64,000 bases of DNA, taken from contig NZ_LWHJ01000028.1 in the NCBI RefSeq assembly GCF_001652725.1, positions 248,001 to 312,000 of the forward strand. Direction: 5' to 3'. A program made the translations under genes and the position numbers. Positions 17,709 through 57,341 of the stretch are shown piece by piece; positions within the stretch are counted from its first letter, which is position 1; each line of letters begins with the position of its first letter. The notes beneath the pieces are model-generated. The model was given only the letters and a program-made list of their open reading frames with translations, was not told where the DNA came from and searched no databases. This DNA is from Pedobacter psychrophilus (GTDB taxonomy: Bacteria > Bacteroidota > Bacteroidia > Sphingobacteriales > Sphingobacteriaceae).

Positions 17709-17788
17709 GGGCGTTTTAACACGCTATACACTGTAGTTTTTTACCGCAAAAAAGCGGTTAAAAAAGCTGTCGTTCCTATCGTTAACGC
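17709..17788. repeat. Structured GGCGTT...AACGC intergenic element, copy A
   Basis: The 80-base element begins GGGCGTTTTA and ends TCGTTAACGC, so its ends are complementary. Inside is a hairpin (TTTTTTACCGC against GCGGTTAAAAAA, one bulge). The parts GGCGTTTTA, CGCT-TA, TGTCG and TAACGCAAA recur in the same order in copy B (23889-23992). It sits 25 bases upstream of mqnB. Confidence 0.7.
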
Positions 17789-17813
17789 AAAAATCAAATT
17801 AAGAAATGATGAC

Positions 17814-18455
17814 ATGAAGATATTATTAGTAGCTGCAACCTATCAAGAAATTGAGCCCTTTATTAAAAAATATGCTCCAAAATTTAATGCAGATGAGTTG
17901 TTAAAAGTTGGGAAACATGATATTAAGATAATGATTACAGGTGTTGGAATGGTAGCAACAGCTTATGCATTAGGCAAAACATTAGCTCAAGAAAACTTCG
18001 ATTTGGCCTTAAATGTAGGTATTGCGGGTAGTTTTTATCGCAATATAAAATTAGGGCAATTGGTAGAGGTAAGAGAAGATATTTTATCAGAACTTGGTGC
18101 AGAAGATGATGAAGAATTTATTTCTTTAGAACAATTAGAGATGGGCGAAGTTGAATTTAGGGCTTCAGAAAAAATCTTTTTAAAAGATAACTTAAGAAAA
18201 GTAACCGCAATAACTGTAAATACTGTTCACGGCAACGAAGACAGCATAGAAGAAATACGAGATAGGATAAACCCAACTATAGAAACAATGGAAGGTGCTG
18301 CGTTTTTTTATGCTTGTGAAGAAGCGCAAGTAGAGGCTTTGCAAATACGTTGTATCTCTAATTATGTAGAAAAGAGAAATCGTGAAAACTGGAATCTGGT
18401 TTTAGCTGTTAACAATTTAAATGAATGGCTAATTAATAATCTTAAAAACATTTAG
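17814..18455 (+). CDS. mqnB: Futalosine hydrolase
   Basis: The 213-residue protein belongs to the nucleoside phosphorylase/MTAN fold. It is expected to cleave futalosine to dehypoxanthinyl futalosine and hypoxanthine in menaquinone biosynthesis. Visible motifs are MITGVGMVATAYALGK, the glycine-rich LNVGIAGSFYRN, and TMEGAAFFYACEE, which carries the purine/ribose-binding Met-Glu. The C-terminal IRCISNYVEKRNRENWNL also fits MqnB. The next gene, mqnD, acts in the same pathway, which makes this call much stronger than a generic nucleosidase. Copy A of the GGCGTT element lies between it and the divergent queD. Confidence 0.92.
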   Translation: MKILLVAATYQEIEPFIKKYAPKFNADELLKVGKHDIKIMITGVGMVATAYALGKTLAQENFDLALNVGIAGSFYRNIKLGQLVEVREDILSELGAEDDEEFISLEQLEMGEVEFRASEKIFLKDNLRKVTAITVNTVHGNEDSIEEIRDRINPTIETMEGAAFFYACEEAQVEALQIRCISNYVEKRNRENWNLVLAVNNLNEWLINNLKNI

Positions 18456-18490
18456 GCTTAAAGCATTATGCACAAAGCTTAAAGCAGCCT
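18456..18490. repeat. 7-nt periodic GCNNNNN repeat, tract 1 (5 units)
   Basis: GC dinucleotides stand exactly 7 bases apart at 18456, 18463, 18470, 18477 and 18484 (units such as GCTTAAA, GCATTAT, GCACAAA). The tract starts right after the mqnB stop codon. Confidence 0.65.
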
Positions 18491-18537
18491 ACATAATTTA
18501 TATACTAAATTCATATTAAGCTAATCATATTAGTTTT

Positions 18538-18572
18538 GCTTTGAGCTTTAAGCATTTTGCTTTCAGCGTTTT
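18538..18572. repeat. 7-nt periodic GCNNNNN repeat, tract 2 (5 units)
   Basis: GC at 18538, 18545, 18552, 18559 and 18566, again every 7 bases (GCTTTGA, GCTTTAA, GCATTTT). It ends 13 bases before the mqnD ATG. With tract 1 it flanks an AT-rich 47-base centre. The two tracts are roughly inverted copies and could form an imperfect stem. Confidence 0.65.
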
Positions 18573-22577: not shown

Positions 22578-22605
22578 GCAAAAAGCTGATGGCTTAAAGC
22601 TAATA
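22578..22605. repeat. 7-nt periodic GCNNNNN repeat, tract 3 (4 units)
   Basis: GC at 22578, 22585, 22592 and 22599, every 7 bases (GCAAAAA, GCTGATG, GCTTAAA, GCTAATA). It fills much of the 66-base spacer between the UbiA-like gene and the phosphoesterase gene. Confidence 0.6.
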
Positions 22606-41101: not shown

Positions 41102-41572
41102 ATGGGAATAGGAACTTTTTCGCAAATTTATGTACAAATTATTTTTGCGGTTAAAGGGAGAAATAGTTTGATAAAAGCTGAATGGGAAAATGAACTCTAT
41201 AAATACATCACAGGAATTATTCGAAATAAAGATCAAAAACTTTTGGCAATAAACGGAATGCCTGATCATATCCATATTTTAATAGGCATGCGACCTAATT
41301 GTTGTTTATCTGATTTGGTGAGAGAAATTAAAAAATCTTCTAATGAATTTATAAAGGAGAAAAAATTTATAAAAGATGTTTTTGCCTGGCAAACAGGTTA
41401 TGGGGCTTTTTCCTACAGTCATTCCTCATTAAACAACGTGATTAATTACATCAATAATCAAAAGGATCATCATAAGAAGAAATTGTTTAAGGAAGAATAT
41501 AGGGAGTTTTTAAATAAGTTTGCAATAGAATATAAAGATGAATATTTATTTGAATGGATAGAATATGTATGA
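41102..41572 (+). CDS. REP-associated tyrosine transposase (RAYT, IS200-like)
   Basis: The 156-residue protein is a Y1 HUH enzyme. The metal-binding pair is His56-x-His58 in PDHIHIL and the nucleophile is Tyr116 in VINYINNQKDHH. It is a single-copy, domesticated-type transposase lacking any orfB. The next 150 bases hold several palindromes with arms AATCC/GGATT, the kind of REP sequence that RAYT enzymes bind. The first palindrome overlaps the stop codon. It is likely a resident RAYT with its cognate REP elements and not a mobile IS. Confidence 0.9.
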   Translation: MGIGTFSQIYVQIIFAVKGRNSLIKAEWENELYKYITGIIRNKDQKLLAINGMPDHIHILIGMRPNCCLSDLVREIKKSSNEFIKEKKFIKDVFAWQTGYGAFSYSHSSLNNVINYINNQKDHHKKKLFKEEYREFLNKFAIEYKDEYLFEWIEYV

Positions 41573-44885: not shown

Positions 44886-45452
44886 CTAGCGCATAAAGTT
44901 TAATAACAAATCTTCTGCCTCTTTGCATGCTAAATCAAGTTCATTATTTTTCAAAATCACATCAAATTTTGAAGCATAGGTTAGCTCTTTTTCTGCTTTA
45001 TTAATTCTCTCTGTAACTTTCTGTTCAGTTTCTGTACCTCTATTTTTTAATCTATCAACTAAAACGGCCAAAGAAGGTGGCTGTACAAAAATAGCCAAAG
45101 CATTTTTCCCATATTTCTTTTTTAACCTTAATCCACCTTCAACATCCAAATCAAAAATCACGGTTTTTCCTTGATCCCAAATTCTTTGGATTTCACTATT
45201 TAAAGTTCCGTAAAATGTACCCGAGTAAACCTCTTCAAATTCTACAAATTCATGTTTAGCTACTTTGTGCAAAAACTCTTCTTTTGTAATAAAGTAATAA
45301 TCTATTTTATGGCGCTCATCACCTCTAGAAGGGCGAGTAGTGGCAGAAATTGAAAACGCAATTTTATCAGGAAACGTTTTAAGAAGATGATGGACTATGG
45401 TGGTTTTTCCAGCACCGGAGGGAGCAGAAAATATTATAAGTTTACCTTTCAT
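44886..45452 (-). CDS. gmk: Guanylate kinase
   Basis: The 188-residue enzyme phosphorylates GMP to GDP with ATP. The P-loop SAPSGAGKTT (9-18), the GMP-binding region with TTRPSRGDE and VDYYF-like KIDYYFITKEEF, and EFVEFEEVYSGTFYGT are intact. Between its ATG and the upstream yicC gene lies heptad repeat tract 4. The order yicC-gmk is common in bacteria. Confidence 0.96.
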   Translation of the reverse strand: MKGKLIIFSAPSGAGKTTIVHHLLKTFPDKIAFSISATTRPSRGDERHKIDYYFITKEEFLHKVAKHEFVEFEEVYSGTFYGTLNSEIQRIWDQGKTVIFDLDVEGGLRLKKKYGKNALAIFVQPPSLAVLVDRLKNRGTETEQKVTERINKAEKELTYASKFDVILKNNELDLACKEAEDLLLNFMR

Positions 45453-45460
45453 ATTTTTAA

Positions 45461-45523
45461 GCTTAAAGCTTTAAGCTCAAAGCAGAAAGCGTTTAGCCTT
45501 ATGCCTTTTGCCTTAAGCGTATT
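45461..45523. repeat. 7-nt periodic GCNNNNN repeat, tract 4 (9 units)
   Basis: GC dinucleotides at 45461, 45468, 45475, 45482, 45489, 45496, 45503, 45510 and 45517, each exactly 7 bases apart with variable five-base fillers. The tract fills almost exactly the 72-base spacer between yicC and gmk. Confidence 0.8.
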
Positions 45524-45524
45524 T

Positions 45525-46400
45525 TTAAAGTACGTTTAATAGTTGTTCTTTAATTTTCTCCAATTCCTCTTTCATCCCAACTACATAACGCTGAATATTG
45601 GCATCATTTGCTTTAGAGCCCATCGTATTAATTTCTCTACCAATTTCTTGGGATATAAAACCTAATTTTTTGCCGTTAGCATCTTTGTTTTTTAAGGTTT
45701 CGATAAAATAATCGCAATGGCTTTTTAAACGTACTTTTTCTTCGGTGATATCTAACTTATCTATGTAATAAATCAGCTCTTGCTCTAATCTATTTTGGTC
45801 AACCTTATCTTTTCCAACAACATCACTTAGCATAGTTGTCAACTTTTCTTTAATGGCCGGAATTCTGTTGGTTTCATTTTTTGCCACTAACTCCATTAAA
45901 TCGAGAATGGTTTGCACCCTTTCTGTTAGGTCCTTTTCTAAAACAGCACCTTCATCTGCCCTAAATTTTTGAAAATTATCAACTGAAGCATAAAAAGCTT
46001 CTAATACCAATTTCCATTCCTCTTCAGAAACGGAAGATTCATCATATTTAATTACCTCTGGTAAATTAATAGCTGCGACAAACAATTTATCATCGCTTTG
46101 TCCTAAGTCTTGAGCGGCAGACTGTAATTCTTTGAAATAATATTTTAGTAGATCTTTATTGATGGTTGCCGCTTTAGAAGTATTATCAATGGTTTCTGCA
46201 TTAATGCTTAGCATCACTTTCCCTCTTTCTAACAATTTGCTACACTCGTTTCTTAAAAAGAATTCTTTATCAGAAAAAGCTTTTGGCAGCTTTATATTTA
46301 GTTCTAGAAACTTGCTGTTTAGGGATTTTATTTCGACGGTATATTTGCCGTTAGGTAAGTTTTTGATACCGGTACCGTAACCAGTCATTGATTTAATCAT
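45525..46400 (-). CDS. yicC: YicC-family endoribonuclease
   Basis: The 291-residue protein belongs to the YicC/YloC family of RNases. The N-terminus MIKSMTGYG and IKSLNSKFLELNIKLP are family signatures. The C-terminal FISQEIGREINTMGSKAND region with a conserved Glu pattern is present too. I start at the ATG of 46400, where the family signature begins; another ATG at 46439 would add 13 residues not typical of the family. gmk follows after the heptad tract. Confidence 0.93.
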   Translation of the reverse strand: MIKSMTGYGTGIKNLPNGKYTVEIKSLNSKFLELNIKLPKAFSDKEFFLRNECSKLLERGKVMLSINAETIDNTSKAATINKDLLKYYFKELQSAAQDLGQSDDKLFVAAINLPEVIKYDESSVSEEEWKLVLEAFYASVDNFQKFRADEGAVLEKDLTERVQTILDLMELVAKNETNRIPAIKEKLTTMLSDVVGKDKVDQNRLEQELIYYIDKLDITEEKVRLKSHCDYFIETLKNKDANGKKLGFISQEIGREINTMGSKANDANIQRYVVGMKEELEKIKEQLLNVL

Positions 46401-46590
46401 TTGCAAAGATAAAATTAATAGGGGAATTAAATTATCCATTAATTGAAAATGGGCAATTGGAATTTTATGAAGGATTTAGTGAAAAATGAAAATGCTAAAA
46501 GCGTTAACTCAAAAACAGATAAACAAGAGAATGTTAAAAAACATTAAAAGTCCGGTCATTAAATAAAAATTGGGGATATTAGAATCGTTT

Positions 46591-57140: not shown

Positions 57141-57212
57141 ATTTAATTTTTTTAAATTGTTATTGATTTAGGAAAGTATAAAGATTGCAAACAAGGGGGC
57201 TTAACGCATAAT

Positions 57213-57262
57213 GGTTTAGCATTTTTTTTACGTGGTTGCAATCATTTCAAATCATTCCACTT
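57213..57262 (-). ncRNA. Probable SAM-II riboswitch in the metK leader
   Basis: On the minus strand the order is GTGG, GATTTG, TTGCAA, CCAC, a run of A, and GCTAAA. This is the SAM-II H-type pseudoknot plan: GTGG pairs with CCAC (P1), and TTGCA and GCTAAA provide the conserved P2 and ligand-contact bases (GC of TTGCA with GC of GCTAAA). AATG and CATT after the core could extend P2. It ends about 73 bases before the metK ATG, so control might act through leader structure and not by direct burial of the start. This comes from memory of the SAM-II consensus; no covariance search was done. Confidence 0.75.
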
Positions 57263-57341
57263 AATAATGATGTAAAGGTATAACAATTTTTATTTTATGA
57301 GAAAAATAGGATTACTTTGTGACTAATAAATTATTTACTTT

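What the first reader, a model, noticed from the sequence alone, without database searches (positions are those of the whole stretch)
45461..45523. A 7-base-periodic GCNNNNN repeat family fills intergenic spacers
In this tract nine GC dinucleotides stand exactly 7 bases apart with variable fillers, and the tract spans almost the whole yicC-gmk spacer. Three other tracts with the same phase rule occur at 18456-18490, 18538-18572 and 22578-22605, all outside genes. The conserved part is the 7-base phase and the GC, not the full unit. That differs from ordinary microsatellites and suggests a replication-slippage or site-directed process acting on heptamers, or a structured spacer. Heptanucleotide STRR repeats are known in cyanobacteria; I know of no described role in Pedobacter-like genomes.
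Basis: seen in the sequence. Interest (0 to 1): 0.65.

Follow-up and report, generated by a model that had tools for sequence, protein, structure and literature searches.

The report
Heptad-built hairpins between operon genes
The odd 7-base rhythm is the DNA of a hairpin between two genes whose arms are made of loosely repeated 7-letter words; related bacteria keep a hairpin at the same spot while the words change, so structure rather than sequence seems to be what is preserved.

Summary
The four runs are the only GCNNNNN runs of at least four in the window. In 464 kb of this genome, spacers hold 9 such runs against 0.04 in shuffles; coding DNA holds 2 against 1.2. The reading changes, though. 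GC is one of many words; the general feature is a 7-base phase, often in two inverted arms. 45461-45518 is one 58-nt hairpin on the gmk mRNA strand; 18456-18490 and 18538-18572 are the two arms of another. Of 61 yicC-gmk spacers from relatives, 45 have a lag-7 signal, and arms match their own partner better than other species' arms (0 of 10,000 permutations). At rpoB-rpoC, 39 of 42 spacers fold strongly, including all 28 heptad ones, with different words per species. Tracts are rare in divergent spacers and hairpins there lack U-tails. Best explanation: intercistronic hairpins kept for structure, built and renewed by a 7-nt duplication process. RNA-level function is inferred; direct tests are mixed. 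Close precedents are heptameric repeats of Xanthomonas/Nostoc and Beggiatoaceae; degenerate words and word turnover at a conserved hairpin appear new.

The parts
45453..45524 (-). yicC-gmk intercistronic spacer; folds in the mRNA sense (-) as one hairpin
   Evidence: RNA fold -22.3 kcal/mol, z -3.2; genes by NCBIfam TIGR03263 and TIGR00255
45496..45518 (-). 5' arm of the hairpin in mRNA sense (heptads of the AAGGC type)
   Evidence: dot-bracket converted to window coordinates; nine-GC run
45461..45483 (-). 3' arm of the hairpin in mRNA sense (heptads of the GCTTT type)
   Evidence: dot-bracket; nine-GC run
18456..18486 (+). 5' arm of a second element, directly after the stop codon of the futalosine hydrolase gene
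   Evidence: inverted arms, 25 of 31 positions complementary; RNA fold -36.7 kcal/mol, z -5.7
18487..18536 (+). 50-nt loop between the two arms
18537..18567 (+). 3' arm of the second element
22578..22600 (-). short degenerate heptad tract (4 GC) between two genes on the - strand; no significant fold
   Evidence: spacer fold z -1.5
44886..45452 (-). gmk, guanylate kinase (downstream cistron)
   Evidence: TIGR03263, E 2.2e-58
45525..46439 (-). yicC/yloC endoribonuclease gene (upstream cistron)
   Evidence: TIGR00255, E 3.8e-60
17814..18455 (+). futalosine hydrolase gene (upstream cistron of the second element)
   Evidence: TIGR03664, E 1.7e-47

Best explanation
The tracts are the arms of intercistronic stem-loops. 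Each arm is a run of degenerate heptads (a 3-4 base core, 3-4 freer filler bases) and the second arm carries the reverse-complement word. Shown: the 7-base phase, the inverted arms at two operon sites, the persistence of a hairpin at those orthologous spacers, the change of words between species and between sites, the rarity of U-tails and the rarity in divergent spacers. Inferred: the element works as an mRNA hairpin that begins at the stop codon of one gene and separates it from the next, most likely as a barrier or cut site for ribonucleases (stems of about 20 pairs are in the size range of an RNase III substrate; recalled, not tested), so that only pairing is selected. Inferred: the 7-base phase comes from the way arms arise and are renewed, by duplication of about 7 nt within an arm plus copying between arms; a hairpin of repeated heptads still pairs after a gain or loss of a unit.
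For: Lag 7 is the top lag of 4-24 in 1,440 spacers that leave out the yicC-gmk spacers of the L-loci and of the window: 88 segments, with 63 and 52 at lags 14 and 21 and 6-33 at the others; coding DNA, 2.15 Mb, has 24 at lag 7. Own spacers: 16 versus 3.2 in dinucleotide shuffles. yicC-gmk: 45 of 61 spacers have lag-7 p<0.01 (46 of 61 with dinucleotide shuffles), best lag 7 in 46 of 61, arm-swap 0 of 10,000. rpoB-rpoC: 28 of 42 heptad (same 28 of 42 count with dinucleotide shuffles), all 28 with fold z<-2, sense more stable than antisense in 20 against 8, p=0.019; arm-swap 0 of 10,000 on the 16 spacers of the first search. Eleven of the 14 non-heptad rpoB-rpoC spacers also fold with z<-2; the three that do not (L258, L263, L264) come from other families. 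Covariation on 23 chosen orthologues: covariation score reached by 0 of 500 shuffles, 14 cells changed on both sides reached by 6 of 500. Stems start about 1 nt after the stop codon (medians 1.0 and 1.5). Spacers with tracts: convergent 20 of 224, co-directional 38 of 821, divergent 5 of 350. Arm mismatches lie mostly in the least conserved phases (6% rising to 44%, 31 hairpins). Copy-number change: G009 and G011 differ by 21 nt, three units, in one tract.
Against: At yicC-gmk the sense RNA is not more stable than the antisense (25 against 19, p=0.29), and G-U mismatches do not significantly exceed A-C ones (28 against 19), so RNA-level selection is not shown there. 32 of 61 yicC-gmk spacers have hairpin p>=0.01. 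At a third site (C11:160967) 7 of 11 spacers have lag-7 p<0.01 but only 1 of 11 has hairpin p<0.01, and the arm-swap test failed (2,307 of 10,000). Many of the other tracts are single arms. The 22578 tract does not fold significantly. In the covariation test the number of pairs with changes on both sides (6) was reached by 39 of 500 shuffles, and the structure came from the same alignment. Two of the 28 'heptad' rpoB-rpoC spacers, L256 and L259, look by eye like ordinary hairpins. Some length changes are not multiples of seven (36, 30, 8 and 3 nt). Related species share words, so counts are not independent. No expression data.
Confidence: 0.55

Rival explanations
1. Purely mutational: heptameric simple repeats arise by slippage, and foldback copying makes them palindromic; they survive only where they do no harm (gene 3' ends), with no function.
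For: Heptamers are the commonest repeat class in most genomes of an earlier survey and a polymerase-footprint cause was proposed (passages of PMC4679880 and PMC4692102). Tracts are rare in divergent, promoter-bearing spacers. The futalosine-hydrolase element (130-nt spacer) is absent in the close relatives G010, G012, G005, G007, G008 and G015, whose spacers there are 1-6 nt, so it was probably gained recently, and no donor copy was found. Many spacers carry single arms.
Against: Hairpins sit at the same core-operon sites across genera, at rpoB-rpoC also where the phase is lost; core phases are conserved over 23 chosen orthologues; at rpoB-rpoC 26 of 28 heptad hairpins have -22.9 kcal/mol or less.
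Confidence: 0.27
2. The heptad is a protein ruler: an array of 7-nt binding frames for a single-strand-binding protein such as a cold-shock protein, which melts the hairpin.
For: MacGregor 2015 notes that B. subtilis CspB can bind heptamer repeats, one protein per heptamer (passage); the Thermotoga CSP prefers T- and U-heptamers (passages of PMC7704496); 3' arm cores such as CTTT and ACTT are pyrimidine-rich.
Against: TmCsp binds two molecules per heptamer; 8-nt versions exist at the same sites (L117, L118, L301); words such as ACTGACC and AACGCC are not T-rich; 14 of 42 rpoB-rpoC spacers lack the phase.
Confidence: 0.08
3. Intrinsic transcription terminators or attenuators.
For: Stable hairpins at gene 3' ends; tracts most frequent in convergent spacers.
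Against: Only 3 of 45 yicC-gmk and 3 of 28 rpoB-rpoC heptad hairpins have 5 or more T in the 8 nt after the stem (convergent spacers were not tested for this); rpoB-rpoC must be read through.
Confidence: 0.05
4. Mobile palindromes of the REP/RAYT or MITE kind.
For: Intergenic, palindromic, probably gained recently at one site; eight Y1-transposase matches in the genome.
Against: No shared sequence beyond short heptad matches (the 22-50-nt matches, where at most 21 candidates per genome were scored); none of the eight Y1 loci has a heptad hairpin within its 1.5-kb flanks; words differ from site to site in one genome.
Confidence: 0.05

Closest known systems
G-rich heptameric repeats GGGNATC of Xanthomonas and GGGGA(C/T)T of Nostoc (Rehm et al. 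2015, PMC4692102; passages and the discussion read)
   Same: 7-nt unit, intergenic, close to gene ends, under-represented between divergent genes, in Xanthomonas pairs of arrays in convergent orientation able to form stem-loops (70 cases in Xcc), site kept between two species while length and sequence vary
   Different: There one nearly fixed G4-forming word per genome was studied; here many degenerate words per genome without G-tracts, and the word at one site differs among species
TAACTGA heptamer direct repeats of Beggiatoaceae, Cyanobacteria and five Bacteroidetes (MacGregor 2015, PMC4679880; passages and its Bacteroidetes section read)
   Same: 7-nt intergenic repeats, present in some Bacteroidetes, shorter spacers without repeats in close relatives
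   Different: [quoted passage not shown] here degenerate words, inverted arms, stems starting at stop codons
Cyanobacterial STRR heptanucleotides and the heptanucleotide repeats of the Nostoc trnL intron P6b stem (recalled; only search listings seen)
   Same: Heptad unit; in P6b degenerate heptads within a paired stem (recalled)
   Different: STRRs are near-identical tandem copies and P6b is a single intron stem (recalled)
REP/BIME palindromes with RAYT genes (general features recalled; search listing only)
   Same: Intergenic hairpins
   Different: No shared consensus, no heptad hairpin beside the Y1 genes

Membership tests
Heptameric simple sequence repeats (Xanthomonas/Nostoc type) | 7-nt period dominant in spacers | tested here: met
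   lag 7 top of 4-24 in pooled spacers
Heptameric simple sequence repeats (Xanthomonas/Nostoc type) | perfect or near-perfect copies of one word | tested here: not met
   degenerate units, several words per genome
Heptameric simple sequence repeats (Xanthomonas/Nostoc type) | G-tracts able to form quadruplexes | tested here: not met
   none of the four window tracts holds GGG or CCC
TAACTGA repeats | the word TAACTGA as direct repeat upstream of start codons | tested here: not met
   the four window tracts lack the word on both strands; stems begin at stop codons
REP/RAYT elements | conserved palindromic consensus in many copies | tested here: not met
   no full-length second copy found
REP/RAYT elements | same element flanks a RAYT gene | tested here: not met
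   0 of 8 Y1 loci, 1.5-kb flanks
Intrinsic terminator | U-tract after the stem | tested here: not met
   3 of 45 and 3 of 28 at the two operon sites
Rfam structured RNA | match to a curated family at the tract | tested here: not met
   two Rfam hits in the window at gathering score, neither at a tract
RNase III intercistronic processing site | double-stranded stem of about 20 pairs or more, cut in vivo | tested here: inconclusive
   stem length fits (median 19 and 23.5 pairs); cutting not testable here

The most novel reading that the evidence does not exclude
A class of sequence-free, heptad-phased hairpins is built de novo at gene 3' ends in Sphingobacteriaceae and parts of Bacteroidota, including between rpoB and rpoC, by a specific 7-nt copying process; selection keeps the pairing and a G-rich-first polarity (5' arm G>C in 63 against 5 heptad hairpins of the two operon sites, five further ones being equal) while words are replaced wholesale. 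A bolder form, not excluded: both 3' ends of a break receive the same G-type heptad word and are joined, which would give exactly this polarity.
Probability: 0.3. Interest if true: 0.85.

Novelty: new variant of a known kind. Interest (0 to 1): 0.62.

Why it matters
If right, operons of a whole bacterial family keep hairpins whose sequence is free but which are usually built with a 7-base rhythm. That gives a natural experiment on two open questions: why 7-nt repeats are so common in bacteria, and what hairpins between genes such as rpoB and rpoC do. The non-heptad hairpins at the same site allow the two questions to be separated. It would also explain microsatellite-like spacers that annotation now ignores.

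Tried and rejected
GC as the family signature: rejected, because the aligned orthologues keep AAAG/CTTT and other tracts have no GC phase. Two separate tracts at 18456 and 18538: rejected, they are arms of one hairpin. Transposition or REP origin: rejected for lack of copies and of RAYT linkage. Terminators: rejected at the two operon sites for lack of U-tails. RNA-level selection by G-U bias: tested, not significant in any of four groups; by sense/antisense stability: not significant at yicC-gmk (25:19), p=0.019 at rpoB-rpoC (20:8, with 9:5 and p=0.24 for non-heptad ones), p=0.047 for 63 other co-directional heptad spacers with p=0.064 for 622 non-heptad ones. Purine-rich 5' arm as a heptad hallmark: weakened, since non-heptad hairpins show it too (32 of 37 versus 205 of 298), while G>C on the 5' arm was 22:8 versus 134:120 in that mixed set. 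Stop codons in all three frames: 39 of 46 and 24 of 27 spacers versus 22.8 and 18.0 in letter shuffles, but a repeated word with any period not divisible by three would give this. Foldback origin of the 18456 element from its flank was looked at by eye and left as too weak.

Rows dropped: 5 of 110 gmk loci had no recognisable yicC end, leaving 105 loci with 94 distinct spacers; 61 of these, 40-160 nt long, were tested, and some of them still include the first six bases of gmk. For the alignment I chose 23 spacers by eye as alignable. Four rpoB-rpoC spacers of 18-34 nt and duplicates were left out of the 42; one search gave loci for only the best 30 of 58 matching genomes. At C11:160967 I left out one of 12 matches (L246, another family). 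Heptad status rests on random shuffles, so counts differ by one between and among. leave out the yicC-gmk spacers of L-loci and of the window, but not those inside the G002, G013, G019 and G024 stretches. Genes in scripts are simple longest-ORF calls of 80 codons or more, not a gene finder. In one search my start pattern missed three close relatives (L212, L215, L216); their 1-nt spacers are read. Literature: all ten searches listed no description of this in Pedobacter or relatives; the library lacks most subscription journals.

Full report
What is there. The nine-GC run at 45461-45518 is real and fills 58 of 72 bases between gmk and yicC; with 18456-18485, 18538-18567 and 22578-22600 it is one of only four runs of four or more in the window. 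Dinucleotide shuffles of the spacers give 0.017 runs where 4 are seen in the window, and 0.04 where 9 are seen in 464 kb of the genome; coding DNA has 2 against 1.2 expected.

What it is. The own genome (4.0 Mb, 33 contigs) lies near Pedobacter (best named relatives in gmk protein: P. segetis 89%, P. cryophilus 81%). In a 400-kb sample of contig C11, 7-base-periodic tracts recur in spacers but use many words: GC-type, AAGTTNN with AACTTNN, GAGNNNN with CTCNNNN, CAAGNNN with CTTGNNN. Over 1,440 spacers of 86 sequences the lag spectrum has 88 segments at lag 7, 63 at 14 and 52 at 21, with the others between 6 and 33; lag 8 (33) and 16 (22) suggest a minor second series. Coding DNA peaks at multiples of three, as expected, and has 24 lag-7 segments in 2.15 Mb. 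The signal is not universal: five Sphingobacterium loci, two Desertivirga loci and eight unnamed-genus MAG loci gave none at lag 7; of 20 further stretches, 5 of 15 class-level relatives, 0 of 4 other genera of the family and the one of G010 had lag-7 segments, and 50 kb of E. coli K-12 had none.

The tracts are arms of hairpins. 45461-45518 is a single hairpin in the mRNA sense (-22.3 kcal/mol, z -3.2; as DNA with flanks it is weaker, z -1.6 and -0.6). 18456-18486 and 18537-18567 pair with each other around a 50-nt loop (RNA z -5.7; DNA z -3.4). The 22578 tract does not fold significantly.

Orthologous yicC-gmk spacers. Of 110 gmk loci, 105 gave a yicC end and 94 distinct spacers. Spacers range from 1-2 nt (no element, for example Sphingobacterium) to over 100 nt. 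Of the 61 spacers of 40-160 nt, 45 have lag-7 p<0.01 (46 with dinucleotide shuffles), 46 have 7 as best lag among 3-12, and 29 have hairpin p<0.01; swapping right arms among species never reached the observed complementarity in 10,000 permutations. The words differ by clade at this one site: GCTTAAA, GCGTTAG with AACGCC, AGTTTAA with CAACTTT, GTTGAAA with CAACCTT(C) (8-nt), GGTGAGT with ACTGACC, TACGTTT with ACGTACA. In 23 spacers that I chose as alignable (66-72 nt), the conserved phases are G and AA in the 5' arm (majority 0.90-0.97) and CTTT in the 3' arm (0.85-1.00), while the other phases lie at 0.53-0.77 and 0.56-0.76. Covariation is present but modest: 89.5% of cells paired and a covariation score reached by 0 of 500 shuffles, 14 cells changed on both sides (6 of 500), 6 pairs with such a change (39 of 500); the structure came from the same alignment, and a register one column off still pairs 77.6%.

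A second core operon. C11:82725-82806 lies between rpoB and rpoC (NCBIfam). From two searches (loci for the best 30 of 58 matching genomes in the second) I obtained 42 distinct spacers of at least 45 nt. Twenty-eight are heptad-phased (28 also with dinucleotide shuffles), with words such as AAGTTNN, AAGGCNT, AGGTNNN, ACGTTNT and GAGTNNT, though L256 and L259 look by eye like ordinary hairpins. All 28 fold with z<-2 (mean -6.1 against letter shuffles; -15 to -38 kcal/mol, 26 of 28 at or below -22.9). Of the 14 others, 11 also fold with z<-2; the three that do not are from other families. The 37 spacers from the own family all fold with z<-2; two more family spacers are 18 nt long and hold no element. 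The sense strand is more stable in 20 against 8 heptad cases (p=0.019), and the 5' half has more G than C in 26 against 1. Arm swapping: 0 of 10,000 for the 16 spacers of the first search. So within the family the hairpin is the constant and the heptad phase is its usual building style.

Gain and change. The 130-nt spacer of the second window element is 5 nt long in the nearest relative G010 (95% protein identity), 6 nt in G008 and 1 nt in G012, G005, G007 and G015; it is 13 nt in G002, 39 nt without a lag-7 signal in G009, 79 nt in G001 (lag-7 p=0.04), and about 82 nt with a different ACTTTNN-like tract in G003; in the other relatives the next gene differs or was not recognised. No copy of the 141-nt region was found elsewhere in 41 genomes beyond 22-50-nt heptad matches (at most 21 candidates scored per genome). 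A complete two-armed element can therefore probably appear within one branch and not by copying a held element. Between G009 and G011 one tract differs by 21 nt (three units) and by 36 nt. The third site, C11:160967, has lag-7 p<0.01 in 7 of 11 relatives, own included, but hairpin p<0.01 in only 1 of 11, and the arm-swap test fails there (2,307 of 10,000).

Mechanism. Position argues for the transcript: stems begin about 1 nt after the stop codon (medians 1.0 and 1.5), tracts are in 20 of 224 convergent, 38 of 821 co-directional and only 5 of 350 divergent spacers (co-directional against divergent p=0.006), and U-tails are rare at the two operon sites (3 of 45 and 3 of 28), so these are not intrinsic terminators. 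Direct tests of RNA-level selection are mixed: no sense bias at yicC-gmk (25:19) and no significant G-U excess, against the sense bias at rpoB-rpoC. I take an mRNA barrier or processing hairpin as most likely (inference), with the 7-base phase coming from unit duplication and arm-to-arm copying (inference). Arm mismatches concentrate in the least conserved phases (6% to 44%, 31 hairpins), which both selection on the core and a word-copying process would give. A strict 7-nt protein ruler is unlikely because 8-nt and non-phased hairpins occupy the same sites.

Relation to known things. Rehm et al. 2015 (PMC4692102; passages and discussion read) described G-rich heptamers in Xanthomonas with 70 convergent inverted pairs in Xcc (few such pairs in Nostoc), under-representation between divergent genes and sites mostly kept between two species, and repeated the proposal that 7 nt reflects the polymerase footprint. 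MacGregor 2015 (PMC4679880; passages and its Bacteroidetes section read) described TAACTGA repeats, with other heptamers noted in some Bacteroidetes spacers that are short and repeat-free in close relatives. STRRs and the trnL P6b heptads are recalled. What I did not find in print in ten searches is the degenerate-word form, its turnover at a conserved hairpin, and its presence in rpoB-rpoC and yicC-gmk; the library is incomplete, so this is not proof of novelty.

Limits. Species are related and words shared, so p-values that treat spacers as independent overstate. Shuffles for hairpins keep only base composition; lag-7 counts were repeated with dinucleotide shuffles. Genes were called by a simple ORF rule. 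Nothing here shows transcription.

Noticed in passing
window 57206-57266 (-) and 17713-17793 (-): Rfam matches: a SAM-II riboswitch and a Flavo-1 RNA, both above gathering score.
   Followed up: no
window 41102-41572 (+): IS200/IS605-like transposase (NF033573); the genome has eight Y1-transposase matches, some with short palindromic repeats of their own in the flanks, for example L188.
   Followed up: partly
L106:14522-14559, L109:14569-14621, L173:14694-14740: Near-perfect heptamer arrays (ATTGGTC repeated, about 5 to 7.6 copies) in a divergent spacer of three Pedobacter records, with different copy numbers: ordinary tandem repeats unlike the degenerate hairpins.
   Followed up: no
L117, L118 (yicC-gmk) and L301 (rpoB-rpoC): Same hairpin position built of words with period 8 (GTTGNAAN / CAACCTTC) instead of 7.
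   Followed up: partly
L059 (G014), gmk match 1501-1896: gmk of G014 appears as two matches, one with two stops inside: a broken gene or an assembly error, near a heptad-like spacer.
   Followed up: no
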